Origin: Tribonema minus
Taxonomy: Eukaryota > Sar > Xanthophyceae > Tribonematales > Tribonemataceae
Assembly (NCBI GenBank): GCA_017506865.1
Contig: JAFCMP010000003.1
Location: 62,001 to 126,000 of the forward strand
Direction of reading: 5' to 3'
Length of the DNA: 64,000 bases
Part shown: positions 12,369-64,000 of the stretch, one piece after another
How positions within the stretch are numbered: position 1 is the stretch's first letter
How the letters are laid out: every line of letters begins with the position of its first letter
Notes under the pieces: generated by a model
What the model was told of the DNA's origin: nothing
Database searches by the model: none
The model's input: only the letters and a program-made list of their open reading frames with translations
Program-made: the position numbers and the translations under genes

Positions 12369-13497
12369 GGTTGAGACATGTCGACATTTGCATGCTTATG
12401 GTGCCACGCACTGTCGCTTTGCACACAGACATACAGACATGTACGACTGGGTTCAAGTGCCTTCACTTGTGTTCTGTTCTGCGGGCAGTAGGACTAGTAA
12501 GAGGAGAATGCCATGACACGCTCAGACCTGACAGTGTACATTCGCATGCAGACAAAAAGTATGGGGTAGGAAGCACTTCAATTTGTTTTGTGTTTTCAAT
12601 TGCAGCACGCCATGCTGCGGCAGCAGCGGCGCCTGCGGGCGGCCCGCTAGCTGCAGCAATGCGCTCAGCTGCTGCAGTGGTGCCAGTGAGCGCCGCCCAA
12701 GAGGCTGATGCATAGCGGCGCGCTGCGAAGGTAGCGGCGCCGGCATGGCGCCGTGCCAGTCGCGGCGCGTGCTGCTGGTGTGGCGGCGCCGGAGCGCACC
12801 GCGCACGTACCAGTGGCACCATGGAGTGCTGCGGCAGCAGCGGCGCCTGCAGGCGCCGCTCCAGCTGCGCCGTGCACAGCTCCTGTACTGGCAGCAGCGC
12901 CAGCGGGCGCTGCTCATTTACAAGCAACAGCCTGAGCTGCGCAACACAGCGCTGCACTGGTAGCGGCGCCTGGGCACTGCAGCCCTTGTGGCATGTGCGG
13001 CTGTTGTGGCGGCACTGGGCAAGCGCTGGACATGTTCCCCTAGCAACAGGCCTGGGGCACCACGGAGAGCGGTGACCGTGTGACAGCAGCGGCACCTGCA
13101 AACTTTGAAAGCCGCGTCAGCTGCGGTGCACGCAGCTTCTCTGGCGGTGCCAGCAGCGCCGACCACACAGTCGCCGCCTAAGCCTCTGGGCCATGTCTTC
13201 GCAGTGTCAGCGGCAGCCCTGTCTTACATCGCTGTCCAGCCAGGAACCACCATTCGCACGCGCGCACGCGCATCGCGCTGCCGCCGCGCCGCCGCCGCCC
13301 GCAGCTGCCCCGCCGCCGCCGCGCCGCCGCGCGCAAGGGCTAAATAATACATTAGTAGGGCTTGCAGATTATGACGAATTTGAACACTTTGAGCTGACGA
13401 GACACAGGCAGTGAAATAGGCGACCCGATGGCAGAGGAGGCGCAATAGGTTAGGCAGCGCCGCAAGTCCGCTACCTGCTGCCCGCTGCAGCAGAGTG
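12369..13497. other. GC-rich low-complexity block upstream of the SLC4 gene
   Basis: From about 12600 to 13340 the sequence is dominated by GCAGCGGCG-like strings that read as Ala/Pro/Gly/Arg-rich peptides in several frames, with stops in each. The composition resembles the Ala-rich stretch of the LINE at 26500-27260, so it may be a decayed retroelement fragment, but I could not align it. The last 150 bases should include the promoter and 5' UTR of the SLC4 gene. Confidence 0.45.
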
Positions 13498-25195: not shown

Positions 25196-25324
25196 GCCAC
25201 TCGCCCCTCTGCACTACGAGTCCGTTTAGCATGTTCTCATTGTTCTGCATGCACCAGGACTTGAAGTGGAAAGGGTTGTCTGGAAGGAAGAAATGCCTTG
25301 TTTGGCGTTCCTTCGGGCTGCAAC

Positions 25325-38486: not shown

Positions 38487-38691
38487 GGCTGCAGGTACTC
38501 TTCCTTTGCCCCTACAGGACCTCTTTCGCCTCTCCTAGCGTGTGCAGGCCACTTCTGCGATCCTGATCTTCAGACTTCGAGCTGGCTGTTGAGCTTTGGT
38601 TGTGCCTTACGCAAAGGGGGCATTATTTCCGCCCCCGGATCGCTAAGGCGCAAAGTTGTGATCGCAGTCAATTTCGTATCCTCGTAGCACC
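38487..38691. promoter_or_regulatory. Shared divergent promoter, RPT2 and PGK
   Basis: 205 bases separate the two start codons facing away from each other. CT-rich tracts are visible on the plus strand; no TATA box is obvious. Both genes are housekeeping genes, which fits a compact bidirectional promoter. Confidence 0.5.
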
Positions 38692-43062: not shown

Positions 43063-46000
43063 TCACATGCAGCGGCAGAAGTTGTTGCCGCCGCCCTTGA
43101 CCCAGGGCACCTGTGCCTCGTTCTCGAGTGTGCGCTCGTGGGCAACCTCCTCTGGGGCAGGGGACGCAGGCGCAGTGGGGCCGGGCGGGGCCTCTGCCAG
43201 CTGGCGCCCCTCCTGAGCAATGACACACAAAAAAATGACACACGCACGCAGCCTTGTGGATCTGTATTCTTTCGAAGTATGTGCGTAGGATATGCATAGG
43301 GGGACTGAGGGATCGGTACAAGGATCTTGTTGCGCGTTCAGGCACCTGCGGCCTTGCCAGCCTGACAAAAGGCATATTGGGCCGTATTATTGCAGTTGAG
43401 TTGGAGTTAAGTTATGGTCTCAAGCCCGCATGAGGTGCATACAGTCAAGAGCTAGACAATCTGGTAGGTCAATCTAACCCCAGCATTTGCTTGACAGCTG
43501 AATGAAGGTGGCCGTCTTTGAGAAGCAGATGATGGTGCGCAACGCCTGCTACACCAGTGTCTAGGAACCCAGAACCGGGCAGTTGAAGGGAGAATCCTGC
43601 TGATGCACACCTCGCTGCTGCTATGCACTGGGGACAATGTGCGGCGACAATTGCCGACACAGCATGGTTGTGCAGTATGTAGCACTCATCTGATTGGTTC
43701 TCCTCACCCTGCAATACCCTGCCTTGACCACAACAGGGCCGGCTGCTGTTGAGGGTTTGATGAAGCGTACCTTGTCTGACGTTCATTCCATAACCCTAAC
43801 CTTAACCCAATCTTAAACCTAACGTTATATGGCAGCAGTTGTATGATCAGGCGACCAGGGCATGTACAAATGTATGTGTTGACCGGGCTTGACTTGACGA
43901 AGAGCTGGGACGATGGAGTACAAGTGCAGTTCTGATTGCGTACCTGTACTTGTTTGAACCACTCAGCTCCCTGGTTGTACTTGCTCTCTGTGAACTCCGC
44001 AAACCTGTCACCGCACGCAAGCAACACATGTATGCATGTCAATGAGAGGAATGTATGGCAATGGGGGTTGGCGTTTGCCTAGCTGCGGCAACTGCATGTA
44101 CGTTTATATATCCCGTATAGCACTGTAGACTGCTTGAGTGAACTGGCTCGAACGACAACGCACACTACAACGTTCGTGAAATTGGAAACCAAAGCAAAGC
44201 AAACACAGTCACCTTCCAACACTTGACAAGGAATGTGCACACAAGGAGTCTTAAGCACTTGAAGTTTGTCCTCACTTGTCCTCGTGGTGGAGGGTGACGC
44301 CCCACGTGTCGGACTGCATGCGGCCCTCGGCCTTCATCTTGTTGAAAAAGTCAACAGCCTCCTTGCGGGCGAGGCGACCCACTGCGTGCACGGTGCGCAG
44401 CAGCTCCAGGTGCACATCGTCGGCCATCTGCACTCAGAGCATGTCAAACAGAGGGAACAGATTCATTTCAGCAAGCGCAACTGTGGGCGAGGCGACCCAC
44501 TGCGTGCACGGTGCGCAGCAGCTCCAGGTGCACATCGTCGGCCATCTGCACTCAGAGCATGTCAAACAGTTTCATTTTCAGCAAGCGCAACTGTACACTT
44601 TCAGGCAACACGTGCATCTGATTCAACTTGATATGGTGGTGCTCAGCACGCTGCCACTGCAGAGCACGTCCAAGAGAGCAAGAGCAATTCGGGTAGCACG
44701 TATGCCAGCCTCTTGCACATAAAGCTGGGGGGTACTTTAGGGGAAATTGATGCAACAGTGCTCAGCAGCTTGTGGGGCACCCAATTGCACAACATGTTGT
44801 CCTCACAGGCATCAAGCACAGAACAATCAATTACACAGAGTACCTGCCATGTCACTCAGGATGACCCCCACACTCACACACTCTTATGCTTTGCCGGAGC
44901 TCAACTGTGACTCCAACATGGAAGGCAAATACGCACCTTGCTGTCGCCACAGACGTAGTAGTGGCACTTGGGATTCTGCAGCAAGGTCCAGAGCTTCTCC
45001 CGCTGCTCCGCAATCAGGTTCTGCACGTACACCTTTTTATTGGGGTCAATGCGGCTGAAGGCCACCTGCTCACAGGCAACACAGGAGCAGAGGAGCCACC
45101 TATGGATAGTGTTCTGACGGTGTGAAGCATACATATTGTTGTTAGGGGCGGGGTTAGGTTCCATCCCCGTCACCGCGTGTGGTACAAGCACAAGTGAAGC
45201 GTCCTGCATCTATCTCTGATTGCGTTCCACAGGTTATAGAAGTTTTGATGTGCAAGGAGCTTCTCAAGCCTGACCTCAGCCGTGACTCCGTTCGTAGCAG
45301 TTATGACCTAGTCTTCACCGTGACATGCAGCTGACATGCCTCTGCTTCTGGTGCCAAAGCAACGGCCTGTCATGTGACCAATGGTGCAGGGGTGAACAAC
45401 TGCACATATTCAGGAGTGTGGTGGTAACTGCCACGGCCTCAGATTCAACTTCAACAGCAGTCACCTGCAGGTCGGTGATGATGCCAGTGCTCTCCCACTT
45501 CCGCATCTGCTCCTGGTGAAGGAAGTCAGGGGGCCCTCTGCAGCCAAAGTACACAGTGCAGGGCCCGATGCTGGACCCATTGGCCGCACCCTTGGCTGCC
45601 ACCTCACGGGCCTGTTTGTGACAACCAAAGCGTTGCACATGTGAGTAATTCAATGAGAGTGAGTAGTGAGACATGAGTCAGCTGCAGGTGACCTGACACC
45701 CTGGGACGCAATCACACGACACTCCACTTGAGTGACAACTGCTACGCCAGCTGAGAGAGAATTGTAACACTTGAGCATTGCTTTGAGTGGGGGTATCATG
45801 GCATCACAGCAACATGGTGCGTATATATGTGCATAGCTACCATCAGGACAATCTGGGGGTTTGCATTGACGGTTGCAATACATGAGAGACGCAGTATCAG
45901 GGGACGATGACACATGTCTTGTTGAACATGTATCACACATGATCACAAGCAGGGCGAGGCTTGGTATGCCCAAACCCTAACCCTAGTCCCTACCCTCACG

Positions 46001-49000
46001 TGTGCCTCAAGCTGCTTTCCAACGTTGCAAGCAGTACTAGCGAAAGCACTATACCTGCAGGAAGCCGAGCATGGGGGAGATGCCTGTGCCGGGTCCCACC
46101 ATGATGACGGGAGCACCACTCATATCCTGGGGCAGCCTGAAGGAGGATGTGCGGATGCTCAACCGGATGGTGTCCTTCCCAGCAACAGTGCTCGACAGGT
46201 AGTTGGAGCACATGCCCTTGCGCAAACGGTGCTCGGCCGCCTTGCCCTTGGCAGGAGGGATCTGTGGATGAAGTGATGTAGCGAAAAGAGAGAGGAAACA
46301 TAGATGTCATGTCAGCTCACAGGGCAGCATGCGCTCAGGGAGAGGAAACAGAGATAGTTGTCGTGTCAGCTCACAGGGGCAGCACGCGTTCGTACAGCTG
46401 AGTCGTCTTGCATTTGCATCATTCATTGTGCGGTGTCAGAAGAAACAGTAGTGGCATCCTGTCATGCATAGGAATTTCAGCAGCAGAGCCTGTCCAACAG
46501 GGATGTCAGCTGCAGGTGTCTTGGAGGACTACAATGGGAGCAGTACATATCAGCTGAGTAAAGCAAAAATTCCTCAGTTGCTGCCCTAGGGAAACTCAAC
46601 GAAAGCGTTCTAGAGCACACTGGCTCGTGCATTGCAAATCATAACAAACGTTGTCGTGCATGCGTCTGACAGCAAGGAAGCACGCCGCCGTCAACTCATG
46701 GATTCAGCAGCTTCATGTGCTGATCAAATCTTCATGTGCTGTTTTTGATCAGGCAGAAGCACCATTGCTCACCAGCACGGCCATTGTCATTCATTGAATC
46801 AGGAATTTGAACTATTGCATAGTTGAAGTACGGGCAGCAGTGCTCACCTGCAACACGCCCACGGTCAGCTGTACATCGGTGGGCCACATTTCGTGTGCCG
46901 ATGCAATACTGTAGAAGCGGGGCTTGATCTTGGTCAGTGTCTGCAGCAATCAATACAACGGCAGAATTCGTAGCGTTAGGCCGCTGCAGCGTGACAGGTG
47001 GTACTGTAACACTCTAAACAACAGCAATGGTAGAATGTCAATGCTGCCATACAGTAAGAGCTCAGGCGGATGCAGCAGATGGTTAACAGCAAGCCACGTG
47101 CAGATTGTCACGAGTCAACAAAACAGGAGACTGCTGTCACGAGACGTATACTTCAAGTTGAAGTACAAAGAGCAGTGTGAACATAGTACTTCAAACAGGC
47201 ATGAACATGCAAAGGCACTATTGATGGTCAAGTACCCGTGGAAACGCACCTTGAACATGTCGCTGAGGGTGATGGTGCTTGTTGCCTTGGGGAAGGCTTG
47301 CAGCAGCTGCGAAACTGTCACGTAAGTTGCCAGGATGTCTCTCTCCGCTGCGGCCACGGCCTTCTCACTGGACTTGTCAACCTTGAGAGACTCCAACATT
47401 GCCTCTAGGCGACCTTCCTCTGCGCGATCCGCACCTGGGCCGCTGGTTGCCCTTGAGTATAGCAGGGTCAGCAGTGCCTGTATGAAGTAGGAGTCAATAT
47501 GGCAGAACACACATGCGGTGTAAGCCACACTTAGCTGCAAAATGCAAATGCCTGTACTGTCCAGCATGCATCACATGTAGCAACCCTCAATCTAACCATG
47601 CATAGTCTGCTTTGAGCACTACAATTTAGTAGGTATTCTCACCAGCAGGTTGTTGCTGCTCGTGGCCAGATCCAGCTCCTCCATGAACACGTGCTTGACC
47701 TGAGCAGGCACAGCAAACGGGATCCTGTCGCCGGTGACATTGACCCACTGGTGCGGACTGACTTTCAGCAGCTCGCACATATCAGCAACTTCAACCACGT
47801 CGTTCTTGGGTAGAATGGCGGCGTGGTCGCCGGTGTGGTAGCGCAGCGTTGAGTTGGCGAGGTCAAACTGCAGGAAGCGCGTGCTGCGGAACGCGCCGCT
47901 GTTCTCCTCCTCCACCTGGGGGGGGGGGGGGGGGGGGGTCCAGTTAATGACATGAGGGGGGTCAGTGATAACGGCATGTTATGCCCTAGAGTTGGGTCCA
48001 TCGCAATGCCATATTATGCTCCAGCATTGGGGTTAGTGACAACGTCATATGATGCCCTAGGGTGCCTCAGGGTTCGGAGTTAGAGTCGGGCTGGCATTCG
48101 GCGTCTTGCACAGGCCCGTCCGTTGCTCCAAGATGATGGATCCAGACTTCAGATGAATAGCGGCACATAGCATTTGGTGCTGTGTTGGGATCACCCTCAA
48201 CGTAGGGTTCATTGACGGCAGCAACCGTTATCAGCAGTGCTTCAGTTAGAGGATGTGCCTTCGAACAACGTGCTGCGCAAGGGCCTGCTAGACTGTTGCC
48301 GTAAGTGCGGCAGTGCTAAGAAAGAGCAACAGTGCTCAACAATGTGCAGTACAGCATGCAATCCACATACTTCAGAAGGCAAACAATTCCATTGCAGATT
48401 GGCACTGCCCTTTTGAGCCACTGTAAATGCATGATGCCATGTGTCTCAACCCCACATCTCGCAGTCGGCAGTTACACATCGGCAGTTACGTCTGCCAGTA
48501 ACTGACCTCCAAGATCTCCGAGTTGCGCACAACGGGGCACAGCTCAAAGCCGGACGGCAGCTGCTTGCCGGCCGCCTTGGCTGCCGTGACAGCGTCATCT
48601 GTCTTTTCCAGGAGAGTCACCACCATGTCCTCCTCTTCCTGTGAGCAAAGTAGCAATGATTGAACGAGTGCGTGAATGGGGTGATGTATGATGGATGGGA
48701 TCAGTCAGGCCGTTCAGAGGGTGTGCATGTATGTCGCGCAAGTGGCGCTCATACACTGAGTGGAACAAGTCAAGCCATAGCCGACGCAACATGCCTCTGT
48801 TAAGCACATTTGTCTGTGGCTTCACCTGACAGAAAGTGCCGTTGCGTAATGCGCACTCAAGCCACCACATGGATATGCAACAGAACATCCTGCTGACGAT
48901 CTTTCACGATGTGACATGATCACTGTGCATGATTTGGCATATGATCAGTGTGCATACATACATACCTCTGAGCCACGGCCAGCTTCCTTGACCAGGTCTG

Positions 49001-52000
49001 TCAGGCCCAGCGCATTGGCCACCTGGCCTATCCATTCAGCGACTGTGTTGGCCTGGTTCTTGAGCTCATCAGCCTTGGCGATTGGCAGTAGCTCTATACC
49101 TCCCATCTTCTTCATGATGGCGTTCAGCCTGGCAACCGATGTAGAAACCAGTGGTGACAAAAGCAAATGGTGAAGCCAGGGGAGACAATGATGATGGTAT
49201 TCAGCCTGACTATGTAGTAAAAAGCAGATGGTGAAACCAGGGGATGGCAAATGGCCAGGCAATGCAATTGGTGCAGATTAGATTCATGTACAGCGGGGTC
49301 CCGCCAGCCTCTTCGCTCTTATGACCGCTCCTATATCGTCCTGATGCTCAAATAGGGCTACATCAAGCCCTAAGCTAACCCTAACCCTATACAGCGCAGA
49401 ACACTTCTGCATTTCAAGTTGCATTGGCTATCACCAGCAGCTGGTGTGAACAAGATGTGACTGCAGAAGAATGTTCACGACAGGGTTTAACGGGCGACAT
49501 GCAAGCGAAAGTGAAGTGCAGCAGTGTTGCACCTTGACCCGGACCCTACCCGATGGTTGGTTCCTAACCCTAACCCTAGCCCTAGCTTCACAGAGTACCC
49601 TCTTGAGTACAGCCCTCACTTGCACACGGAGGACTCAACACGTCCAACTCCAGGCATAGCTCCAGAGCATTTTGCAATCTGTACATCTGGCTCAGGACGT
49701 CATCACAATACTTCAAATCTATAACAAAAAATGACTCGTGCTTCAAACCATGCATCCCATATAGCAAAGCATACATACCTGGTGTCGGCGTCACCCAAAA
49801 CTGTGAACTACTACTTCAAAGTTCTTTCTGAAGTACTGGCCACAATCCCCATATGACCTATCACTTAGTGCGGCACTAGCCACTGGCCACTTGCGAGCAT
49901 TCTGATTGATGCTCATCTCGTGTGCGTGTTGCTCACTTGGTGCCGGCGAGACAGTAGTCGGGATAGACCGTAGAGCCGATGGCGAGGGTACAGAAGGTGA
50001 TGCCCTCAATCCCGCTGCGCGGCGTGGCTTGTAGCTTCTCCACAAAGGCCTTGCCGTTGCCTAGCAGAGAAAAATGTGAATCAAAGGCAAAGCATTCAGG
50101 TTGAGGTGCTGTTGAGGTTGGGTGTCACCAATTAAAACTCAACCTGCAGGAGAGTCACTGGCTTAGTAGCTTCTCCACAAAGGCCTTGCCATTGCCTGCG
50201 AGCAATCGTGATCAGTCAGCAAGCAGCGGTCAGATTTGGGAGAGCTGGTGTTGAGTCTGAGTTACAGGTGGATCAACAGAAAGACATTCAGTGCAGAGGT
50301 GGCAGACCAGCCTAGGCACGTAGCAAGCTGGATGTCTTGTGCCATTGCGTCGTGCAATTCAAGCCCCTGCGACCACGGCACATCGTGGCAATGTCGGGTT
50401 TCGGAATGACCCAAACCTCATGGTTAGGGTAGGGTTAGATGCTCCAGGCGCTCCTTTGTGTGACGATCCAAAAAATGGTAGCACGCAGACATATTTCACG
50501 AACTTCAGCCTCAATTGCGGCACACATTCACGTCAACTGACACAGGAAGTGCTCCGTACAAGCAGCCATGATCTGCGCCAGAACAACTTAAGCGTCATAC
50601 AAAGTGTTTTAGAAGTGCTAAAGCTGCTAAAGTCTGGCCTCACAACACTGCATTGAAGTGCATCTACATATATACATACCTGGTGTGTTGCCGTCGCCAA
50701 ATGTTGAAGTGATGAGAATCACAACGTCTGCGCCGCACGTCGAAAGTGTTGATGGCTCCACATTCTCCATGCATTTCTGTCACCAAGGTGGTGAGGCGCG
50801 CAGGCAGATAAGGGTGAGGTGACATGTGCGTCTGGATAAGCAACACATCGCCGATGTACATGAAACTTCAATTTGAAGTACATGTATGGTGAGGTGAGCG
50901 AGTCATCAAGGCCGACAGGTGATGCAGCGCACAAGCAGGCAACAAGGAAAGGTGTCATGTGCGTCCGAACAAAGCAACACACATCGTTGAAGTACATGCT
51001 TCGAAGAATAATTTTGACTTTGAAGTACATGTATGGTGAGATGAGGGAGTACACGTATTGTTGTATCACGCTGTCATGGCCATTGCAGCAGCGCAACACA
51101 GCTGCTTCGCATTCATCGGCTATGTGCACACCACTTTACATACATGCCTTATTGCACAGTGCAGGGCGGCAGGCTCTGCCTCCAGGATCCTAACCCTAAC
51201 ACGACCTGTCCGAACCTCCCCTTCTGGATTATGACTACTGCACAAGCACAGCGGAATATCACACACATTGTTATCGGGTATACCGCATGATGATGCTCAG
51301 CTTCTCTCAGTGACGCATGACGTAATGACTCATGACTCAGTGACTCATGACTCCGTCATCGCCGTGCTAGACGTTGGTGTGGCCGTACCACAAAATGCTG
51401 GCCATCTGCTGCACAAGGCCCCAATCAACAACTGGCGCACTCACCAAACGCAGGCCGGTATTGAAAGTGAAGTTGCTTCACCGCGCATTGCCACAAGAGT
51501 GCAGCACACTACAGCTTTTTGACCAACTCACTTACTCACTGACTCACCACGGTGGACTTGCAAGGGCGCAGCTTCTTGGCGGCGCTGTACGCGTAGCCCT
51601 CTGCGGTGCCCGTTTCAGACGCAAACAGGATCAGCAGCTTCTTGGCCGCCTGGCTGCTGGCTTTCTTGCTGGGGTCCGTCTCACTGCGGAGAACGGAGAA
51701 GGCAATTTTAACTCGCTGTCAATGACTTGTCCTGTGACTTGACTTGAGTAGGCCCAGTGACAAGTGGCTTTGCACACTTTTGAAGCGCGTGGCAGTAACC
51801 CTACCCTTACCCTGAACCCATTACATTTCAGGATGCACGCAAGCGCAGTTGTGTAGCTGCACTTGCATATAGCTGTCCAATAGAGCTGCCACAGCTCTGC
51901 CTACACATAACGTGCATAAAGCATAGGTGGGGTTAGGGTTACCCGACAGCCACGAAACATATTCTCATTGAAAGTATTACGCTTCAAACATCATCCTCGG

Positions 52001-55000
52001 AGTTGAAGTGCCGTACCTCATCTCTGAGCCGCCCATGATGTCCCAGATCTCGGCCTGGTAGCGGTACGCAGCGTGGTCCAGCACAAACTCACGCATCTCG
52101 TGGCCAAACACGGCGGTGAGGCCAGACGACAGGGGCGGCACCACTGCTCAGCAGAACAGCACAAAGAGTCAGCAGCAGTGCTCATCAGTGCAGCAACATT
52201 GTGTGCATACATGGTTGCACACATGTTTCTTAGTATATGAAGGCTTTGCAAACATTTAGATCGCAGAAAAGCCAGCACCACTGCTCAGCAAAACAGTAAG
52301 CAGCGTGATGATATTTCATGCATACACGCATGGTTGCGCACATATTCAGTGTGTACACAAGGAACTGCTTCTGCTTAGTTCGCATAAAGGCACGTTCAGC
52401 AGCCCAACAAAGCAGTGCTCAGCAGCAGCGGTGCTCAATGTGTGCGCAGGTGTTAACATGCAAACTTAGGTAAGGCTCAGGAGCGCATGTTTGCGCAGAG
52501 GCTACAACAACGGGTTGACGGCTCACAAACACACAATCATAGTGCTCAAATCTTTGAGCGCCACCAATCTTCGACCCTTAAGGTCTCAGAGTAGTTTGAG
52601 GGTCAGGAGCAGATGCTTTAGCAGCAGCGGCAACATCAGGGTGGCAGCTGACGAACACTAAATCAAAGTGCTCAGTTTTCAGGGCTTCGCCTATTCCTAG
52701 CCCTAATTGTGAAACTAATCTAAATTCATGCTCTCAAAGTAGGGTGCTGATGCTTAGGTGTCACTGCATCATCGAGTGTTAGCTCAAGACCCTTCAGCGC
52801 ACATGCTTCTGCAGGCAAAGGCTAGCAGCAGTGACCCTACATCGATCTAGCCCTCAGCAGTTGCCCATCATGTGACCCAAACATTTGATGAAGCCCAAGC
52901 AACCTGAAGGTTCACTGCAGCCCTCCCCTAGCCCCTACTTAAACCACAACTTCATTTACACTACTTCACTTACCCCATGACCATTGCGCCGGGCACTCGC
53001 GACCTGCAACGCACCAAGTACCGATACATGTCAGTGAGTCATGAGTCAATGAGATGTGAGTCGTCAAGGCAAGCATGAGTGCACCAGCAGTGGTGTGCTT
53101 GTAACAAATGCAAAGAAAGGCACGCGAGCAGATGCCCTTATATGTGCTTGCTTGCTGTTCAAGTAGGAAACACTTGTTGCTCTGATCGCACATGGACATG
53201 GCACTGATGGACAGAAGCGCAGCGCTCAACAGCACGGAAACCCTAGACATAGGGCAAGGCACCCTGCTGATACCCTAGACCTAGGGCAAGGCACGCACCC
53301 GCGCGCTTCTCTCGCAGGTCGTGTGTGATGAACTGCTGGGATGCCGTCTGGTGGTCCACAATGCTGCAGCCGTGCTTGCGGAAGGAGTGCATGACTGCAA
53401 TGTTGAGCTCCAGGAACACTTTGTCGCGCCAGAAGTTGGTGGTGGAGTCAGTGTCAAACCCCATGGCCTTGCCCAGCTCAATGCCCTGGTAAACAATGGT
53501 GTGTCAGTGGTAACAACAGCGTTTGCATGGGGTCAGGTATTTTTCTACCCAAGCAATGTTGTCAACACCATGGGGATATGCTTTGGCTGTTTGCTCTGCC
53601 ATTTGTTCTGATGTCCCCTGAGAGATGCAATGATGGCGCGAACAGTGAATTGGCTGATCACGTTTACGATGCAAGGGCATACTGCGGTTGGCCATTCGAT
53701 GTTGTGTCAACAACATGCATGAACATGCATACATGCAAAGAGAGTGAAGCATGGAGCCAGAACACTGTGGCTATCATCAGGCACCGATGTGAGAAGTCAG
53801 TCAAAGAGCTCAGGTCCACCAATTGCCAGGACGACAAAGCAGTGAATACCGCCATGATGTCATCAAACGAACATAATGAAGCAGGAAACTGTCACTCTGA
53901 CAATCTGCAGATTACCGACACACTTTCCAGCCTGCTAGGCTCAAGCTAAAGATGCGCAGGCATGACCCTGAGCCTAGGGTCTAACATTAACGAGGATGCG
54001 TACCTTGTCGTAGCGGTATGAGTCCATCAGATCCCTGCCCACTTCCGTGTTCTACGAGGGCACAAACAAGCAGCATGGTTGTGGAGCATCGTCAGAACAG
54101 AACACGAGAAGGCAGAGTGAGAATAGCAGCAAGAGTGCCCTGGGCTATACAATCGCAGAAGCATTGACATCATACACTGAAACAACGCAGCAATTTGCGG
54201 TCGAGAGTCAGACAAAAACTGCAGCATTGCAATGCATCACAGAACATACGTTAAATCACACAGTTGCAAACATTGGCTATGATAATTGAAGCGCAGTAGC
54301 ACAAGCAGCGCAAATGGCAGCAAGCACTTACCATGAACCAACCGTTGAAGGGCACAGCGGGATATTTGATGCCACCTGTAGTAAACATTGCACAAGAAGC
54401 AGCAACCTTGGTGTCAGCGCTTGTTGATGCACAAGCTGCGGTTGTGTCATAATGATGTCAAGACACCCATCCGTGGTATGATACACAGCCGACATGCCCA
54501 GTACACACCGGTACAGTACCGGTGCCGCACCAGGACATGGCACACACCGTGAAGAAAAGGAGGATGCAGTGATGAGTAAGATTCATGGAAAGCTCAGGCA
54601 AGCGGGTCATTATAATGAAGGCAGAAGACCATGTCATCATTGTGCCGTTACAGGCATCGCAAGCACAGTGGCGCAACACCCCGATATGCTGGCAGCAACG
54701 CAGGAGTAGTGCTGACTCCTTGCGTGTGCCTTTCCTCCCAATTATCCCTGCATAGCATTTTCAGGATTGCATTGTCCAACCTTTAAGAGGCATCCCTCAC
54801 GGAAAACACACATGCTTCTGTACTTGTGTAGTTTAAAGTACTACTCACCGAGGTCCATGGTGAAGCCGGTGACGGTGGGCACGACGCACCACTTCAAGTT
54901 CAACTTGACCACCTCCGGGAACTCCGGGTGCTCAATGACCACCGTGCGCACGTACTCGGGAGGGATGTGGTACATCTGTACATGGGTAGGCATGTAGGCA

Positions 55001-58000
55001 GAGCGTACAGTCACAGTCAGCACCAAATGCGGGAGGTGACGCTCACGTGCAGTTCACATGCAGTTCACACACACTGCTCAACAGTTGCGTCAAGTAGGGT
55101 TAGGGTTAGGGTTGGGGTTTGCATTGGCGGCGCACTACGTGCTGACAGCAGTGCACAGTCTCATCTCACAGGGGTGCAACAAGCGTGGTCAATGATCATC
55201 ACTTGCACCACGGAGGGGCGCGGTACATTTCGGTAATGAACTCATAAGAGCAGGTAGGTAGTACATGTAGTGTGCGTAGCAGCAGACAGCAGGGCAGGTA
55301 GGTGGCCCTACTGCTGACTGCAACATGGATTTTGCTCAAGAGGCCAGGCTTGAGCTGTTCTGTGCTGAGCGGTGCAGAGGTCAAATGGGAGGCTGTCCTG
55401 AGAAATTGCCATACGCATAGTAGTGCATAGTCAGTAATGTCCAGGGCTCGTGCTAGTGGGTAGGAGGTCCTCCTGATGTACTCGCAGATACTGCAAGGAA
55501 CAGTTACCTTTCTAACCACTTTGCAGAGTGTTTATATGTCGGAATAGCATCCTGCCAGCAGAGTCGTAGAGCAACTTCACTAGAGCACAACCACTGATAC
55601 ACGGACACCCTCACTCTCATGCATACATCCAGTGGTCAGTTGTTCATTTCCTGTCATTTCTGTCCTTCTGGTCACTCTGTATCAACTTCAACATTGCAGG
55701 AGAGTCGCACAGCAACAACTCACCCTGGCGCCCTGCCCCGGTGTCTCAATGACTATGGGCAGCACATCAAACTCGCCCCGAGGCTCAGGAGGCTGCCAGC
55801 CAAAAGAAATGAGGGCCTTGGTGAGCTCCCTGTTGGCCCTGTCGCCCATTGTTGTGCCGTCGGGCAGCTCATAGCATGCAAAGCGGATCTGCAGGAGTGA
55901 ATGACATGAAACGGAAGATAAAAATGTATGAGCTTACATGGCAGAGTCATAACCCTTTCTAGAGGTACTGTTGCAGTCACACCTGCAAGAGCAGTACAAT
56001 ACAGGTAGAGTGACTAGCAGCAGTCATGTCGTTGGACACTTGGAGCAGTACAATACAGGTAGAGTGACTAGCAGCAGTCATGTCGTTGGACACTTGGTGA
56101 ACCATCATATGTACTGGATCAGGGCCTCAGGCGACGTGGCGCTGCATCCTCCAATGACAGTACAGGTAGAGTGACTAGCAGCAGCGATGTCTTTGGACAC
56201 TTGGTGAACCATCAGATTACTTCATGTGAAGTGGTGCTGCATCTTTCTATGACAATGTAATAGAAGTACGACATGTGAACTTCAAAAGTGCAACATCATC
56301 AGTAGTGCACTCACCAGCTGCACGTTCCAGAAGCGGGGGCCCAGGCGCTCAAGGGGCCTGAGTGGCCTGAACACTGTCATGACAGCCTTGAGAGAGCCGT
56401 CAGCAGTGGCCAGGCGCTGATGTTCAAGGCACTCTGCCATCATCTCATCAGGGTCCTGCGTGGGCAGCACCAGAGGGTATGTATTTTTGTGTGTGGTTTG
56501 AGCACTGCGTCAAGCCCAGATTTGAGCTCTGCTGCACGCGCGCCTGGTCGCAAAAAGTCGGCAACTGCAGTGCCAGGTTGCCAATACAGGTAGTGAATGC
56601 AATACGCATGTGGTATGAAGTCATCTACACAGGTGGTGAATGCACATACATGCATATGCGCCTTGTAGCCAGGAAAAGTGATTGTCCTAGACTAGGTGCC
56701 AATGCTCGGAAAAATGGCGCTGCTGGCTCTGACGCAATGCCACAAATGTGTGAGTCCAGGCACATCAAACACTCTGGGCACTCAGCACAGAAGCGCCACC
56801 TTCTTCACGACTACATGCGGACACTGCACTTGATTGCACAATATGATGTGCTTACCGTGACGATGAGCCCATTTGATTGCACAAAATGATGTTCTTACCG
56901 TGACGTTGCGCCTGTCGCGCACGAGCAGGCTGTTCCATGCAATGCGGCCGATGCACTTGGCAGAGTTGCGCCAGGCCACACGCGCGCCATGCACCAGCTC
57001 CTCCTCCGTGTGCGTGTACGTGCCGCGTGACAGCACCTCGCTCTTGATGACCTGTTGACAGTTACGACAGTTACGTACTTCAATAGTGAGGCGCGTTGAT
57101 GACAATCGGCATGACAATTAATAAAATGTGCCAGCGCCTCGCTCTTGGTGACCTGTTTAGTTGCAACGTTAACATCGATATTAAAGTTACACATATGAAA
57201 CGCCATCATTATGTGAGAACAACCAAGCGCAACAACACCTCGCCCTTGACTATGTACAGTGAGACAACGTGCCACAATAGTGAAGTATAATAATCACAAT
57301 ACATTCACCGGAAGCTGTTGATTACCTGCAAAGGGGGCATGAGACAAGCACAGGTCAAAGCTTTCAGCAGCCGGTGCCCAAACATAAGCAACAGGGGACG
57401 CTTCTTGCAACCCACAGAAGTGTGAGGGTTAGGTAAGGGACATGATCACAATCCAAACCCCATGACCGTACCCTGACCCCAAGGCTAGGTTGGGGACAGT
57501 CACTGCCTACAGAACACATCAGCATCGCCACAAAGTAAAGTACAGTAGCACTGATTGCCATCGGTGGAAACGTTGCACCATTTGCACACCACCAACGACA
57601 TGCATACGAAGCCTCCATCACAACAACTGCATGACCGGCGAGAAATCTCTCAAGCACCTGCTATGCTTAGCAGGAAGTCTCAAGAACGTTCTTACCTCCA
57701 ATTCTATCAACAGCAAAAAATCTACTTCGAAGTATCGAGCAATTTCTGCAAACAGCGGGAAATCTCTGGAAAGTTCTGTACCTCCTTGCGCCGCTCCAGC
57801 GCCTTGGCACTCCATCCCTTCTCCTTTGCCACCAGCTCCACCCACTCATAGCCCTTCTTTATCACGCGCTCCACATTGAACATGGGCAGCACGACCATGT
57901 AGGCCGTGCGCTTGAAGACCGCCTCCCAGAGGAACCTCAACTTCTGACTCTCCGCTGAGTCGCCCGCGAAGGTCGGCATGTGCCTGCACATTCACATGGG

Positions 58001-61000
58001 TTGGCAAGCGAATGAATGTGGATTCATGATGAATTAACTCAAGTGGCTACAGCAGATTGAATACAGTACCATGAAGCAACCCGTTCGCGCAACTGGGCGT
58101 TGCACTGCACTATGCTGGTGTAGGTCTGTATAGCACACTATTAGTCCATGACCCTACTATCAGGACAAGTGCGATTTTCCCATTGATGATGCTGGCAATC
58201 ACGAACCTCATGACGAAATTTAAACGTTCAAATTCAACATAACACTTTTGCCATCCAGCGCAACACACTGAGCTAGGATTGTTGCAATGCAGGCAGTATT
58301 ATTTCAGACCAGAAGATGTGCATAATCTTTGCTCCCTTGCCATCAGTCGTGTAGACATGACATCTCCGGGGGGTGCCTGGCCTTCCAACGCACGCGATAC
58401 ACAAGTATGCATCTTCAAGATGGAGCGTCGGAGGTAAACAAACCTGTCAGGGGACTCTGACTCTGACTCGGCAGAGAAACTGCCCCTCACATCAGCCACC
58501 AAGATGCGCCGTGTGTGTTCCTCAGCAAGCTCAGAGCCCCAGTTGCATCCGCACACATGCCGGCATGCAACTTCGATACTGCATAACATTACCCTCGACC
58601 CTACTCACTTGTTCACTGACTCATCTACTCTGACTCATTTACAAGCACGCTCCCAGTGCTAGGCCCAGATTGTGTCCGTGCCGAGGAGCAAAATCAGAGT
58701 GTTACTTACTCAACAACTCACTTTGCAAACACGCTCCACAGTGCTCCGCCGAGTGCGTTGTGTGCGTAGGATGGTATGCCGAGCAACACGTGCTGCCTGC
58801 CGAGGCTATGCAAAATGGGCAGGGCTGCCTCAAAGTTTGGCACTGCCAGCATCACTACCTGTCAGCACAGATGCGGTAGGCAAACATGATCACACAGAGT
58901 AAGCAGTGGCAATTGCACCAACGCTCATTCTACTTTGAAGTGATGTATGGACTGGGTTGGGGTTGAGCAATGGCGCGACACGCGAGGGTGAGGGGTTAGG
59001 GTTAGCAAGCGCCTGCGAATGAGCTCTCAACGTGACCTGTACCGCAACTCAGTGCATCACAGGGCATGTATAACCCAGAATCCACTTGCAAGCAACCCAC
59101 GAGCGCCAGGCGGGACATAATCACACAAGTCTTACACAATTGGTCAACGGCTTTGAAGATACAAGGGAGCACCCCCCTCCTAAAGGAATGGGGGGCGAGC
59201 GACCCGAAAACAGCCAGCCTCTGTTTGTAAGTTGCGCTTAAAGCAAGTCAGAGACCATCAGCGCAACATTCGCTTGACTCTGCAACATGTGCATCACCTC
59301 ATGTTTTCTGTGCATCACCTCATGTTTTCTGTTGCATTGAAACATTGACATTATGTTTCCTGTTGCATTGAAATCATGTTATGCAGCATGCTGCGGGATT
59401 ACATCTGCATTACCATTAAGCCGGCTGCCACGCTTAGCACATCAACATCACCACGCTCTGGCGAGCAGCGCCAAAAAGGGTTTCTGGGCCCTAACCCTAA
59501 GTGAACCTAGCCCTAGATTAGGGTTGAAGTGAAGTTGCGTGTAACGGCTTGAAGTAGAGGATGAACTCAGAAAAAAGTAGACTTGTGAGCCCTCGAGAGC
59601 TCTGCAGGCCGCGAAGCGTGGCCGCAGGCTTGAGAGTGCAGTACGGTATGTGCTAACCGCCGCACCGCTTCATGCGCTCAGCGCCGCCTTTGCAGCAACA
59701 CCTCGCGAGCTGGAGAGCCAGCACCAGAGTCAGCTCGCCGCTTCCTGGGTGTTCCCGACTGGAGCGGCAACTAGACCCCAGCGCGCTGATTGGTGAACGG
59801 TTGTAGCGATACGCACGTATGCATACCCACACCGCAAAAATCAGCAAGCGTGGCATCACCCAGGTGCATCAGTAGTGCGGACGGAGCCTTGCGCGCGCCA
59901 TGACTTAAGAAGGCTCGCGCCCTGAAGGGTCCCTCGCCTACAAATCCTTGACCAAAATTGCAAAATACGCCACTTACAAGCGCCTTCATCTACGCCACTA
60001 CCCTGTAACGGACGCAGGCAGGCATGTATACATCTAGGGTGAGGGTTGTCACATACATACATGCATACATACAAGCGCATTGTACGCGGTAAAGCGGTAC
60101 AAATGCAGGCAACAAGGATAATTCTAGTAAGCATAATCTACGCTTCTACTCTGTACTCCTGCAGGTTGGCATGTGTACACCCAGGTAGCATGATCACATA
60201 GAAGTACATACATACCTCGAGTGCCTCAAACAAGTGGCCGGAGAGAGCGTCCATATCTGAGCGCGCGAACAGTGGGATGAGCTCCGGGTTGTTGGCAAAG
60301 AATGTGGTGTAGAAGGCCACTCCCATCTCCTTCTTGCGCCCCTCCAAGAATCTCCAGCTCTCCATGAGAATCTATGGATTCGGTGATTAAAGTTGAAGGC
60401 GCTTACAGGTGGTTACGAGCAGGCATCAGCGCTCAGCGCATTATTTGCCAGCAGGCAGTGCTCAGCAGCATGCAGCACAGCCCAGCACCCACTTGAGCCA
60501 CCAATGCATCTCGTCTCTGCGGCAGAAGGCAAACGAGGCATACACTGCTGCAGGCCTCGGATTCAGTCTGTTCAGTCAGCGATTGCACAATTCACTGGTG
60601 GCGATGCTGCCTAACCCTAGCCTCAACCACCTAAGGCAGACTGCATGCCCAAGAGTACAGCCCAGCGAAGTTCGTGCATATTTGCCGTGCATGCGTCATG
60701 ACATGCAGACTTGCAATCATATGAGTGCGACACACGCCCTGTGTCTAAGGTGACATGCCGTGCCGCCAGCACCAAACTTCAACAGTTGACGTGCGCTATT
60801 CCGCGTTTGTGTGTATTGGGCAAGCTTTCTTTTCCACTCTCAGAGGCCACATGCCCATCAACGGTGCAAGTTCAAGCAGCACCTCGTGTTGAAGTTCTCC
60901 CTCTCACCTGGAAGTTCTCCGGTACATCAAAGACATCGCTGACGTCCACAATGGCGCTGTAGGCACGCTCCATAACGACGTTGGTGAAGAACCTGTAGGC

Positions 61001-63570
61001 AGCGCTCTCCTCCCCCCTCTCCATGTCCTCCCTCTCATAGTCCTGCGTGAGGATGGACACATCGCAGAATGAGGAGCGTCACCATCACAGTCATGTGGAG
61101 CGTCACCAAAAACTGGAGCATCATCTTCACGGGCATGATGAGCATCACCACACAGTGAGAAGCTTCAACCTCAAAGTCCATAGGTGTGCGCCTGCCATGC
61201 ACCCGGGATAAGGGTCGCCGTCACAAGATTCGGCAATGTCTGCAAACATCGTGCAAGTTGCACCAACTCGCGCCGCTGCAGCCCCCCAACTTCAACACGT
61301 AACACCCCCACCCCCCACCCACCTCCTGATACGGGCTGTGCAGCAGCGCCTGCACCCACAGATTCCGCAGCGTCTCCCAGTGCTTCGCCTGCAGGCCCAG
61401 CTCCGCAAATATGCGGAAGAAGTCGTCGCCGGCGTGCGTCCACTTAGCCGCTGCTGCTCCCTCCAGCACACTCCGATAAGCCTCGCGCCCGATCTCCTCC
61501 GTGTGGCGGTGGAGCGTGCGCACGCAGCCGTCGAGCGCTGCCATCATTTGCTCCTGGAAGTTGTCGGCGGCGGGCCCAAACTGCGTGGCCATCTCTGTGA
61601 GTGGGCGCGCGGGGGGGGGGGGGGGGGTAACAGTCAGCTACTGTAACTGGTGTTAGCCGTCACTGTGGTGAGCAACGGTTGTGAGCCCTCGTGCAGCAAG
61701 GGCGCAGTATGCAAACAAACACCATGACCATGTGTGGCTGCACACCGCCATACTTATGTACATATGTTGCCTGGCAGTTGATCCGCGTTGATCATACACT
61801 TCAAGAGGCATGCATACGAATGGGAGTATGCACAACAAACGCCAGGCAGCACATGCACTGTCTTCGAACTTGCAAGCGCAGCAACCATACCGCAAGGCCA
61901 CTTCACACATGCGTGAAAGCTTTGAAGAAGCGTGCTGAATCAAGCTAAGCTTCAAATCGCATGATGGCGTTCAACCGCTTACCAGGGTAGAGGAAGAAGA
62001 ACCGCAAGTTACACTACAAGTTGCACAATGGTGTTTCACCCGTTTACCAGGGTACAGGAAGAAGAACCGCTCTGCCAGGTACTCCATTGCAATCTCGTGC
62101 CAGGCCAGCATCTGCGTAGGGCGTGTATTGAGAAGGACTGAGCACTGCAACCAGGGACGCCTGACTGCGACACCAAGCATGTGGTGCAATGGCAGTGCTC
62201 AAAGACAATTCATAACTAGCATCAGCTGCAGTATAGTAGCAGTGCTCAAAGGCAATGCATAGGTAATGCGCGTCAGCTGCGTGTGCACCAGGCGCTGCAT
62301 TGCCAAGGAACGGCTGGCAGGCATCCTGCCAGTGCTCAGCTGCAGTTGAAATTGGCCTGCTTGCCACCAATGTCCTTGAGGATCGCATGACAATGATGCT
62401 ATGTTGAGAGAGCGATGCATGCAGCTGAGAGAGCGATGCATGCAGCTGACGCAGTTGCAAGATGCATGCTGCAACCGCATGTTGCCTTGGCTCAAGTGCA
62501 GTGCGCTGCAGCACAGTTGAGAGGCTGTGTTTCACACAACCAAGTTCATCAACTCAAGTTCATTTATGCAGCCCCTTTACTACATGTAACATACCTACCT
62601 GAGCAAAACGGCACAGGGGGTTGGTATTGCAGCATACATGCTATAGTACACATGACTACCCACACAGCAGCGATCGACACCAACATACCTTGTTGTACGA
62701 GTCCTTCACAATCACAATCTCCACATCCGTGAGCGGATGCTCAGCAGCCATCGCCCTCACCCCGCCCAGCGTCGCCGCCTTCATATCGCGCGTGATCTTA
62801 GACGTCGCCTCCGCGTGCGCCTTCAGCAGTGCCGCGACACGGTTCTTGTGCACATCCGCATCGCGCTTCACCGCGATGGCAGCACTCACCCCCCTGACTA
62901 CCTTCTCAATGACCAGCGCGAAAGTGGCTTTCATGCCCTGCGCGCCGCCCCACGGCAGCGCCACGTCCGCCTTGACATAGTCCACGTCATCGCGGTCAAA
63001 GTGCGCGAGCGGGAGCAGCTCGCCTGCGGCAGCGTCGTCCCACAGGCTCGACCCCTCCGGCTTCATCTGAAAGATGACGACGACGCGCTCCTCCGCCGCG
63101 GGCTGCAGGTGCAGCGGCCACGTGAGCACGTCCTGCTGCGGCAGGTCCTCCTGACGAACCAGGACGTCGCCCAGCATGACGCGCATGCGCAGGCGGAAGT
63201 CGCGCCCGCGCCCCTCCACACCGCTCAGCGCCACCTCCGTGACAGTGAGCACCTGGTTCTCGGCCAGCTGCGTCAGCTTGCGAGTCGAGGGGGCCTGGTC
63301 CCCCTTGACCAGAAAGGGGATGCCATCTTCGCCTATGGTGGGCGCGACAAAGGGGCACTTGCGGCCCGCAGCGGCCACGTCTTTGGGGGGCACCGTTGTG
63401 GTTCTGCGCGGCTCCAGGGACGCGCTGCCGTTGAGCGATGCTTCACCGTTGAGCGCTGCCTCACCGCTGAGCGCTGCTGCATCACCGTTGGGCGCTGCTG
63501 CACTGCCATTGGGCGCTGCTGCGCTGCCGTTGGGCAGCGCGCCGCCGTTGATTGCCGTGTCTGCGCCCAT
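43063..63570 (-). CDS. NOS: Nitric oxide synthase with N-terminal globin region (31 exons)
   Basis: Inferred exons: 63570-62689, 62111-62048, 61594-61323, 61042-60908, 60371-60216, 58858-58722, 58578-58444, 57983-57782, 57051-56899, 56455-56315, 55888-55724, 54975-54849, 54375-54332, 54051-54004, 53485-53299, 53003-52974, 52143-52017, 51683-51548, 50776-50680, 50060-49937, 49128-48966, 48638-48507, 47915-47643, 47477-47250, 46940-46848, 46261-46055, 45611-45465, 45065-44937, 44427-44276, 44004-43944, 43212-43063. All phases agree, giving about 1,698 residues. It makes NO and citrulline from arginine with NADPH. A globin domain (452-590) has [16 protein letters not shown] and proximal-type His near 526 ([12 protein letters not shown]). 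The oxygenase has [13 protein letters not shown] (heme Cys near 694), NGWFMNTEVG (arginine-binding Glu) and QWSWVVPP. Then FMN ([13 protein letters not shown]), FAD ([10 protein letters not shown]) and NADPH ([20 protein letters not shown]) domains. The calmodulin-binding linker is very short. Exon 7's acceptor is the least certain. Confidence 0.93.
44367..44600 (-). repeat. 118-base tandem duplication covering a NOS exon start
   Basis: Two units offset by 118 bases (from 44367 and from 44485) share an identical stretch of about 85 bases that spans the acceptor and first ~60 coding bases of exon 29. The unit upstream in transcription (44485-44569) keeps the acceptor and ATGGCCGACG but lacks the rest of the exon. 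Confidence 0.92.
47921..47939 (-). repeat. Poly-C tract at NOS exon 23 acceptor
   Basis: On the coding strand an unbroken C run ends at the AG of the acceptor (cccag|GTGGAGG). It is the whole polypyrimidine tract. Confidence 0.85.
50031..50199 (-). repeat. NOS exon 20 start and its degraded copy
   Basis: The exon start and acceptor at 50031-50064 recur at 50165-50199 with few changes (gttgcctag versus attgcctgc). The copy reads GNGKAFVEK like the exon but its acceptor is changed to ctcgcag. Confidence 0.85.
50810..51045. repeat. Diverged tandem duplication in a NOS intron with TTGAAGTACATG motifs
   Basis: Two units about 140-150 bases apart each contain catgtgcgtc...aagcaacacatcg and a palindromic ttgaagtacatgtatggtga. 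Each contains a short inverted pair of ACTTCAA/TTGAAGT or TTCGAA type. Confidence 0.7.
51311..51353. repeat. TGACTCA-rich tandem repeat
   Basis: Repeated units of tgactcatgactcagtg lie in a NOS intron; related TGACTCA/TGAGTCA clusters occur near 53030 and 58610. Confidence 0.7.
55985..56210. repeat. Minisatellite in a NOS intron (54-base unit plus a third diverged copy)
   Basis: Two near-identical 54-base units containing acaggtagagtgactagcag and gttggacacttgg are followed, after about 60 bases, by a diverged third copy at 56153-56208. Confidence 0.85.
56830..56868 (-). repeat. Copy of the NOS exon 9 end and donor
   Basis: The stretch matches 56874-56912 (exon 9 end, cgtcacg|gtaagaaca). The copy keeps a donor-like cacg|gtaagc and lies inside the downstream intron. 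Confidence 0.8.
57128..57160 (-). repeat. Copy of the NOS exon 9 start and acceptor
   Basis: The stretch matches 57030-57060 (acceptor aacag and GTCATCAAGAGCGAGG), here with an acceptor ctaaacag and GTCACCAAGAGCGAGG. It could still work as an acceptor. Confidence 0.8.
59166..59940. repeat. Dispersed repeat, copy B, inside a NOS intron
   Basis: This matches copy A (4079-4817) from gcacccccctcct to ccctgaagggtccctcgcct in the same orientation. Relative to A it has a local duplication of gtgcatcacctcatgttttc near 59287-59330. Both copies sit in introns of minus-strand genes. Confidence 0.75.
61611..61627 (-). repeat. Poly-C tract upstream of NOS exon 3 acceptor
   Basis: A C run on the coding strand lies about 16-33 bases before the acceptor cactcacag|AGATGG. 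Confidence 0.8.
61977..62010 (-). repeat. Copy of the NOS exon 2 end and donor
   Basis: The coding strand reads ggttcttcttcctctaccctg followed by gtaagc, repeating exon 2's end at 62041-62075 (donor gtaaac). The copy has the better donor and could be a cryptic site. Confidence 0.85.
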
Positions 63571-64000
63571 GGATCCGGCGCGTTGAGCACTGGGCGGCTC
63601 TGCACGCCGCTGTCCCGTTGCTGCGCAGCAGCAGCAGCAGCAAACAGCAGGAGGCAGACCATCATCAGGTCAAGGTGATGGCGTATTTCAGTGTGCGTGT
63701 TGCGTTGCGCGCGCACACAGCGTGGCATGTACAGCTTGTCATCAGAAGGCATTTCATGCGTCGGCATGCAACATCAGGACTGAAGGAAGCCAAGGGAGTT
63801 CGCAAGGCTAACGATGATTGAGCACTGACTTCGACAACCGATCAAAGTCACTGGCAACTCCGATCGCAAAGCATTCATCAAAAGAGAGTTCAATTCAAAG
63901 TCGACGTAAGCTGTATCATATGTGGTCCAGACCACGATTGCACCAGCGCACTGAGCCACATGCCAGCGCGGTTTCTGATGATTATGGTCCTCCCCGAAAG
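63571..64000. other. Upstream region of NOS
   Basis: No gene is seen. A short CAG run lies at about 63629-63645. The stretch should hold the NOS promoter and 5' UTR. Confidence 0.45.

What the first reader, a model, noticed from the sequence alone, without database searches (positions are those of the whole stretch)
43063..63570. A eukaryotic nitric oxide synthase fused to a globin region
Seen: the chain of exons stays in phase from the N-terminal region through globin-like sequence ([29 protein letters not shown]) into a complete NOS oxygenase and reductase. Known: a globin-NOS fusion is described in the cyanobacterium Synechococcus PCC 7335. Inference: the globin could dioxygenate NO to nitrate or handle O2/NO at the site of synthesis, and the fusion in an intron-rich algal gene may reflect gene transfer or wider ancestry.
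Basis: partly seen in the sequence, partly recalled or inferred. Interest (0 to 1): 0.88.

Follow-up and report, generated by a model that had tools for sequence, protein, structure and literature searches.

The report
Algal six-domain globin–nitric oxide synthase gene
An alga carries a long, intron-rich gene for an enzyme that makes nitric oxide and, through a built-in haemoglobin-like part, can probably turn it into nitrate; it has the same layout as an enzyme known from cyanobacteria and stands beside two sister copies.

Summary
Window 63570..43063 (- strand) reads as 30 exons joined by 29 of 29 GT-AG introns in one frame, 1653 aa. An intact paralogue nearby (NOS2, 91.5% identical) keeps the exon phases and every domain shows dN/dS below 1, so the globin exons belong to the gene. 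It is not an animal-type NOS with a globin added: it has the Synechococcus syNOS layout of C2-like domain, pseudoglobin, haem globin, oxygenase, flavodoxin, FNR and C-terminal tail. The C2 call rests on fold and position; sequence alone is not significant. Best mechanism, inferred from syNOS: arginine to NO at the oxygenase, NO to nitrate at the globin, Ca2+ acting through C2 rather than calmodulin. N-terminal globin-NOS was already reported in diatoms, so 'eukaryotic globin-NOS' is not new. What I did not find described is a eukaryotic gene with all six domains, clustered with a second intact copy and a third without a reductase found. Free trees put it outside the cyanobacteria; AU tests leave this open (p 0.063 and 0.145).

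The parts
62689..63570 (-). Exon 1 (aa 1-294): low-complexity N-terminus, C2-like domain (aa 100-227, window about 63273-62890), linker L1, first helix of the pseudoglobin
   Evidence: Model; AF2 with 11 prokaryotic rows mean pLDDT 80.7, eight strands; top Foldseek and VIA matches are syNOS
62048..62111 (-). Exon 2 (aa 295-315): pseudoglobin
   Evidence: conserved in NOS2
61323..61594 (-). Exon 3 (aa 316-406): pseudoglobin; split by an extra intron in NOS2
   Evidence: aligns with syNOS 218 onward; for the split
60908..61042 (-). Exon 4 (aa 407-451): end of pseudoglobin
60216..60371 (-). Exon 5 (aa 452-503): haem globin, TyrB10 = Y472, PheCD1 = F486
58722..58858 (-). Exon 6 (aa 504-548): haem globin, proximal HisF8 = H526
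57782..57983 (-). Exon 7 (aa 549-616): last globin helix and linker into the oxygenase; no Cys in it, so no animal-type zinc motif seen there
52017..57051 (-). Exons 8-16 (57051-56899, 56455-56315, 55888-55724, 54975-54849, 54375-54332, 54051-54004, 53485-53299, 53003-52974, 52143-52017): NOS oxygenase; haem Cys C649, Arg-binding Glu E868, pterin-site Trp W912 and W914
   Evidence: Pfam NO_synthase 428.4 bits; residues
48966..51683 (-). Exons 17-20 (51683-51548, 50776-50680, 50060-49937, 49128-48966): FMN flavodoxin domain
   Evidence: Pfam Flavodoxin_1 69.3 bits
44276..48638 (-). Exons 21-28 (48638-48507, 47915-47643, 47477-47250, 46940-46848, 46261-46055, 45611-45465, 45065-44937, 44427-44276): FAD/NADPH FNR domain
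   Evidence: Pfam FAD_binding_1 85.5 and NAD_binding_1 57.8 bits
43944..44004 (-). Exon 29 (aa 1584-1604): syNOS-type C-terminal tail [20 protein letters not shown]
   Evidence: phmmer alignment to syNOS runs through syNOS residue 1465; native tail ranks first among the 4576 rows scored out of 5001 (5000 shuffles) against a profile of 17 prokaryotic tails
43063..43212 (-). Exon 30 (aa 1605-1653 and stop): extension ending [15 protein letters not shown]
   Evidence: same last 15 residues in NOS2

Best explanation
A nuclear algal gene for a syNOS-type, six-domain NOS/NO-dioxygenase. Shown here: one in-frame 30-exon gene model, its domain order (C2 by fold only), catalytic residues, tail and conserved paralogue. 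Inferred from the cryo-EM and biochemistry of syNOS: it works as a homodimer; electrons run NADPH to FAD to FMN to the oxygenase haem of the other subunit, and arginine gives NO. The FAD module alternatively reduces the globin haem, which with O2 turns NO into nitrate. The C2 domain, tied by a long linker, moves between the two haem sites in response to Ca2+, and the C-terminal tail holds the closed state. No calmodulin site is seen, though no predictor for one was run. Net effect: a regulated choice between NO signalling and arginine-to-nitrate nitrogen recycling.
For: Gene and exons. Paralogue with conserved exon phases and GT-AG sites. Purifying selection: dN/dS 0.35 C2, 0.12 pseudoglobin, 0.09 globin, 0.06 oxygenase, 0.19 Fld, 0.10 FNR. 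Catalytic residues. C2 fold. The C2 basic patch of syNOS (K35, K37, R81) is basic at the aligned places in NOS1 (R, R, K) and NOS2 (R, R, R), counted by hand. Tail. Linker between oxygenase and flavodoxin as short as in the cyanobacterial rows shown. Mechanism of syNOS: PMC12922734, sections 10, 12, 14, 15 and 16 read.
Against: No transcript or enzyme assay. The C2 match is not significant by sequence: against a profile of 10 prokaryotic C2s, NOS2 gets 3.7 bits and 7 of 2000 shuffles score higher, NOS1's only domain scores -2.7 bits, and hhalign gives probability 1.2%. A fold with three algal rows is uninformative, pLDDT 43, so the good fold depended on the prokaryotic rows. C2 Arg57 (bridge to the oxygenase) and tail Glu1454 of syNOS are not conserved by my hand alignment. 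Globin E7 looks like Leu (L494), not the Gln of flavohaemoglobins (recalled), so NO-dioxygenase competence is inferred. Pfam Globin is 0.9 bits below its cut-off. In syNOS itself Ca2+ lowers NO-dioxygenase activity only modestly and hardly changes globin reduction.
Confidence: 0.82

Rival explanations
1. Two adjacent genes, globin-like and NOS, were joined on paper by the exon model.
For: No transcript was available; the largest introns exceed 1 kb.
Against: The same order of pseudoglobin, globin, oxygenase and reductase occurs without introns in single prokaryotic ORFs; NOS2 has the same exons in the same phases with GT-AG sites, apart from one donor shifted by 3 nt and one extra intron; exon 7 holds the last globin helix and the oxygenase linker together.
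Confidence: 0.03
2. The globin no longer works as an NO dioxygenase and is a haem sensor or structural domain.
For: E7 position is Leu by my alignment; Pfam score is weak; in prokaryotic relatives the globin can be missing (L017, L020) or carry an insertion and lose HisF8 (L013), so the core enzyme may do without it.
Against: TyrB10, PheCD1 and HisF8 kept in NOS1 and NOS2, dN/dS 0.09; the syNOS globin is reported to oxidise NO to nitrate (PMC12922734, passages).
Confidence: 0.2
3. The alga acquired the gene directly from a cyanobacterium (the plastid ancestor or a later donor).
For: The solved relative and most of the fuller prokaryotic relatives are cyanobacterial; the AU test does not reject a clade of algal plus cyanobacterial rows (p 0.063 oxygenase; 0.145 long alignment).
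Against: The free trees place the algal pair outside a well-supported cyanobacterial clade (100/99 and 100/100), near Myxococcota rows with weak support (88/76 and 81/86). Long branches are present and no other algal sequences could be included.
Confidence: 0.25

Closest known systems
syNOS of Synechococcus PCC 7335 (PDB 9q05/9q06/9q15)
   Same: Domain order C2, pseudoglobin, globin, oxygenase, flavodoxin, FNR plus the C-terminal tail; short linker after the oxygenase; 44% identity over pseudoglobin to flavodoxin
   Different: Nuclear gene with 29 introns; about 90 extra N-terminal residues; C-terminal extension ending CRCM; C2 too diverged for a significant sequence match
Diatom N-terminal globin-NOS (Pseudo-nitzschia multistriata, Skeletonema, Thalassiosira), from passages of PMC4648414, PMC8728061 and PMC6104048
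   Same: Eukaryotic alga, globin N-terminal to a NOS of cyanobacterial type
   Different: No sequences at hand; the passages I saw name only globin, oxygenase and reductase parts, so C2, pseudoglobin and tail could not be compared
Green-algal NOS-globin (KnNOS2 and relatives)
   Same: NOS and globin in one protein
   Different: There the globin lies in a C-terminal extension, in KnNOS2 with an ankyrin motif
Flavohaemoglobin (Hmp)
   Same: Globin and FNR modules in one chain, expected NO dioxygenase chemistry
   Different: No NOS oxygenase, flavodoxin, C2 or pseudoglobin in Hmp (recalled)
Animal NOS (iNOS, nNOS)
   Same: Oxygenase and diflavin reductase
   Different: Animal enzymes have a calmodulin-binding linker and a zinc site, neither seen here; clade with iNOS rejected

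Membership tests
NOS (PF02898) | oxygenase domain with haem Cys, Arg-binding Glu and pterin Trp | tested here: met
   428.4 bits against 22.7; C649, E868, W912, W914; roles of residues recalled, aligned with iNOS and syNOS
syNOS-type six-domain NOS | N-terminal C2 domain | tested here: met
syNOS-type six-domain NOS | pseudoglobin between C2 and globin | tested here: met
   aligned to syNOS from residue 218 on; 28-35% identity in 19 of 19 prokaryotic rows, one of them over 55 positions only
syNOS-type six-domain NOS | haem globin with PheCD1 and HisF8 | tested here: met
   F486, H526, also Y472 at B10; Pfam Globin 21.1 bits, cut-off 22
syNOS-type six-domain NOS | no calmodulin-binding linker, no zinc motif | tested here: met
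   linker length as in the cyanobacterial rows shown; no Cys in exon 7; by reading only, no predictor was run
syNOS-type six-domain NOS | syNOS-type C-terminal tail | tested here: met
   the bridge residue Glu1454 is not kept
syNOS-type six-domain NOS | Ca2+-dependent NO synthesis and NO dioxygenase activity | not testable with these tools
   needs purified protein
Animal-type NOS | oxygenase groups with animal NOS | tested here: not met
   p-AU 0.0012 against a clade with iNOS; one animal row only
Green-algal NOS-globin | globin at the C-terminus | tested here: not met
   globin lies N-terminal to the oxygenase; feature
Diatom globin-NOS | sequence clade with diatom proteins | not tested

The most novel reading that the evidence does not exclude
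The alga holds a small NOS system rather than one enzyme: two intact six-domain enzymes with a possible lipid-anchored C-terminus (CRCM), and a third copy (NOS3) with C2, pseudoglobin, globin and oxygenase exons but no reductase found. Because NOS passes electrons between subunits, NOS3 could pair with NOS1 or NOS2 as a regulatory or dominant-negative subunit, giving a eukaryotic, calmodulin-free, Ca2+/C2-switched choice between NO and nitrate at a membrane.
Probability: 0.15. Interest if true: 0.72.

Novelty: new member of a known kind. Interest (0 to 1): 0.5.

Why it matters
If right, the whole syNOS machine, including the C2 switch and the pseudoglobin, is kept in a eukaryotic nuclear genome. 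That would mean a Ca2+-regulated NO source that needs no calmodulin and can recycle arginine nitrogen as nitrate. The three-copy cluster gives natural variants (an intact pair and a copy without a reductase found) for testing what C2, pseudoglobin, globin and tail each do. It also bears on how algae acquired NOS, since the free trees place the gene outside the sampled cyanobacteria.

Tried and rejected
Pfam finds no C2 on a draft N-terminus or on the final model. A C2 profile from 10 prokaryotic proteins does not separate NOS1 or NOS2 from shuffles (NOS2 3.7 bits, 7 of 2000 shuffles higher; NOS1 domain -2.7 bits), and hhalign gives probability 1.2%. A three-row algal profile finds nothing in the PDB at E 10. 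The three-row fold is poor. The PDB hit of the 14-row profile (98.6 bits) is driven by its prokaryotic rows and is not counted as evidence.

Viral origin: 88 stretches matched two peptide patterns in viral contigs, none a relative; no near DNA match of window 46000-63600 in phage records.

Rows dropped: of the 80 loci, 21 (L001-L021) were read as fuller relatives. L015 and L020 were left out of the 21-row alignment and of the oxygenase tree (L020 because my start pattern missed it); L005, L013, L015, L016 and L020 were left out of the long tree. Of the 59 other loci (L022-L080), 14 were used in the oxygenase tree under the label 'oxyonly'; the label is loose, as four of the 14 lie in ORFs of 1087-1103 aa and L032 (with L038, not used) also matches upstream query residues from 127 on. 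Prokaryotic proteins were cut at the first ATG of the ORF, so a missing C2 in some of them may be a wrong start. Six of 29 introns were compared between NOS1 and NOS2.

Organism: not named. A Rubisco fragment with an internal stop in its matched stretch (L095) is nearest to red-type Rubiscos, up to 80 bits against about 66-70 for plant and green-algal entries (which PDB codes belong to which organism is recalled). It hints at a red-lineage plastid. An 18S search did not complete. A paper search for a Tribonema assembly gave no answer in its listing.

Papers: PMC12922734 outline, passages and sections 10, 12, 14, 15, 16; PMC8728061 passages and section 10; PMC6104048 passages; PMC4648414 passages; PMC7554344 part 1 of 4 of the text; all others only as search listings. 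That I found no description of a eukaryotic six-domain NOS rests on searches, in an open-licence library only.

Full report
WHAT IS THERE. On the minus strand, window 63570 to 43063 holds one long gene. I assembled it from open frames and splice sites and corrected it with prokaryotic relatives. The result is 30 exons, 4962 nt of coding sequence and 1653 residues, with 29 of 29 introns GT-AG and the frame kept throughout. Pfam on the final model gives NO_synthase 428.4, FAD_binding_1 85.5, Flavodoxin_1 69.3, NAD_binding_1 57.8 and Globin 21.1 bits; the Globin cut-off is 22, and a cyanobacterial syNOS-type protein (L001) scores 20.8.

IT IS ONE GENE. The genome (158 Mb, 554 contigs) could be searched. 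The 15 NO_synthase matches listed all lie on the contig of the window, in three clusters. Fetching C3:125001-174600 showed the window gene (NOS1, minus), NOS2 (C3:131670-153808, plus) and NOS3 (about C3:168.2k to 156.9k, minus). NOS2 has 31 exons and 1658 residues and is identical to NOS1 at 1472 of 1608 aligned positions. Of 27 exons placed by homology, 27 start after AG and 26 end before GT at the expected base; the other donor is 3 nt earlier. NOS2 has one more intron, inside exon 3. dN/dS between NOS1 and NOS2 is 0.35 for C2, 0.12 pseudoglobin, 0.09 globin, 0.06 oxygenase, 0.19 flavodoxin and 0.10 FNR. Selection on all these parts, and the globin-oxygenase junction inside exon 7, argue against two separate genes.

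WHAT THE PROTEIN IS. Pseudoglobin to flavodoxin is 44% identical to syNOS. syNOS has six domains, with C2 at 1-134, pseudoglobin 179-339, globin 340-473 and oxygenase 474-852 (PMC12922734, section 10). The algal protein follows this order. Its globin keeps TyrB10 (Y472), PheCD1 (F486) and HisF8 (H526); the oxygenase keeps the haem Cys (C649), the arginine-binding Glu (E868) and two Trp at the pterin site (W912, W914) (residue roles recalled). The linker from oxygenase to flavodoxin is as short as in the cyanobacterial rows shown, so no calmodulin site is expected; no predictor was run.

THE TAIL. Exon 29 encodes a syNOS-type C-terminal tail: the PDB alignment runs to syNOS residue 1465, and the native tail ranks first among 4576 scored rows (one native, 5000 shuffles given) in a profile of 17 prokaryotic tails. 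Nair and Crane report no such similarity for the most similar eukaryotic NOS they compared, from Tribonema minus (section 12). Exon 30 adds a stretch that differs between NOS1 and NOS2, but its last 15 residues, [15 protein letters not shown], are identical; a lipid anchor is possible but untested.

HOW IT PROBABLY WORKS. From syNOS (sections 14-16): without Ca2+ the C2 domain blocks the presumed flavodoxin docking site on the oxygenase; with Ca2+ and arginine it moves about 85 Angstrom to the globin, which frees NO synthesis. The FNR is the likely reductant of the globin, which oxidises NO to nitrate. The same paper finds only a modest Ca2+ effect on NO dioxygenase activity and little on globin reduction. 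Applying this to the alga is inference. Against a full match: C2 Arg57 and tail Glu1454 of syNOS are not kept by my alignment, and globin E7 appears to be Leu. PTPS-family matches at three places (36.0, 30.8, 30.1 bits) are compatible with pterin synthesis but not specific.

RELATIVES AND ORIGIN. A scan of prokaryotic genomes kept 80 loci, of which L001-L021 match well beyond the oxygenase: cyanobacteria, Spirosoma, Myxococcota and a Natronohydrobacter MAG. In a 37-row oxygenase tree the algal pair lies with the syNOS-type rows (100/99) but outside the cyanobacteria (100/99), next to one Myxococcota row with weak support (88/76). In the 18-row long tree the cyanobacterial clade has 100/100 and the algal pair groups with two Myxococcota rows at 81/86, with long branches. 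Holding the alga with cyanobacteria is not rejected (p 0.063; 0.145), nor with the one Myxococcota row L017 (p 0.30) nor with Spirosoma (p 0.054); holding it with iNOS is rejected (p 0.0012). The donor is open.

THE CLUSTER. NOS1 and NOS2 are head to head, 6.1 kb between start codons. dS is uneven (oxygenase 0.135, FNR 0.086, globin 0.82), and the intron after exon 25 is 94% identical where the five others sampled are 48-65%. This points to gene conversion. In NOS3, 11 exons were placed, with 11 of 11 donors and 10 of 10 acceptors intact and no stop within them except one upstream of the likely start codon; in the two neighbouring stretches searched one weak match to the end of the oxygenase appeared (E 0.003) and no reductase match better than E 0.2. 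Its motifs are altered (an insertion and loss of the IGRI motif at the haem Cys, loss of PheCD1), and dN/dS to NOS1 is 0.32 over 722 codons. It may be a dying copy or a regulatory one.

VERDICT. Eukaryotic globin-NOS was known from diatoms, so the class is not new; the full architecture in an intron-rich gene cluster is the added value.

Noticed in passing
G000:C3:131670-153808 and about 168228-156907 (loci L089-L093): Two further NOS genes beside the window: NOS2 intact (31 exons, 1658 aa), NOS3 with C2, pseudoglobin, globin and oxygenase exons but no reductase found.
   Followed up: yes
L013:3886-8508: A cyanobacterial syNOS-type NOS has an EF-hand pair inserted inside its globin (Pfam EF-hand_7 E 3e-12), and the proximal His is missing in the alignment.
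   Followed up: partly
L017:4234-7779 and L020:4213-6168: Two Myxococcota relatives have the pseudoglobin and NOS but no haem globin and no recognisable C2, so the pseudoglobin can occur without the globin.
   Followed up: partly
L032:4501-7427 and L038:4501-7709: In two actinobacterial NOS loci the match also covers query residues from 127 on, which includes the globin part, so a separate globin-like gene may lie beside the NOS.
   Followed up: no
window 43063-43212: The C-terminus ends in CRCM, shared with NOS2; it could be a lipidation signal. Both intact proteins also begin with Met-Gly.
   Followed up: no
window 44545-44486: A partial second copy of the start of exon 28 ([20 protein letters not shown]) lies in the preceding intron.
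   Followed up: no
NOS1 against NOS2, oxygenase and FNR parts: Very low dS in oxygenase and FNR and high dS in globin suggest gene conversion between the copies.
   Followed up: partly
window 38662-41120 (+), 24200-25213 (-), 13420-14271 (+), 6464-7156 (-), 36931-37401 (-): Other gene pieces: phosphoglycerate kinase (two ORFs), VTT-domain membrane protein, bicarbonate-transporter-like, 2OG-Fe(II) oxygenase, proteasomal ATPase OB domain; 6 of 10 ORFs scanned had a match.
   Followed up: no
L095 (G000:C112:516888-517037): A Rubisco large-subunit fragment of red type with an internal stop in its matched stretch.
   Followed up: partly
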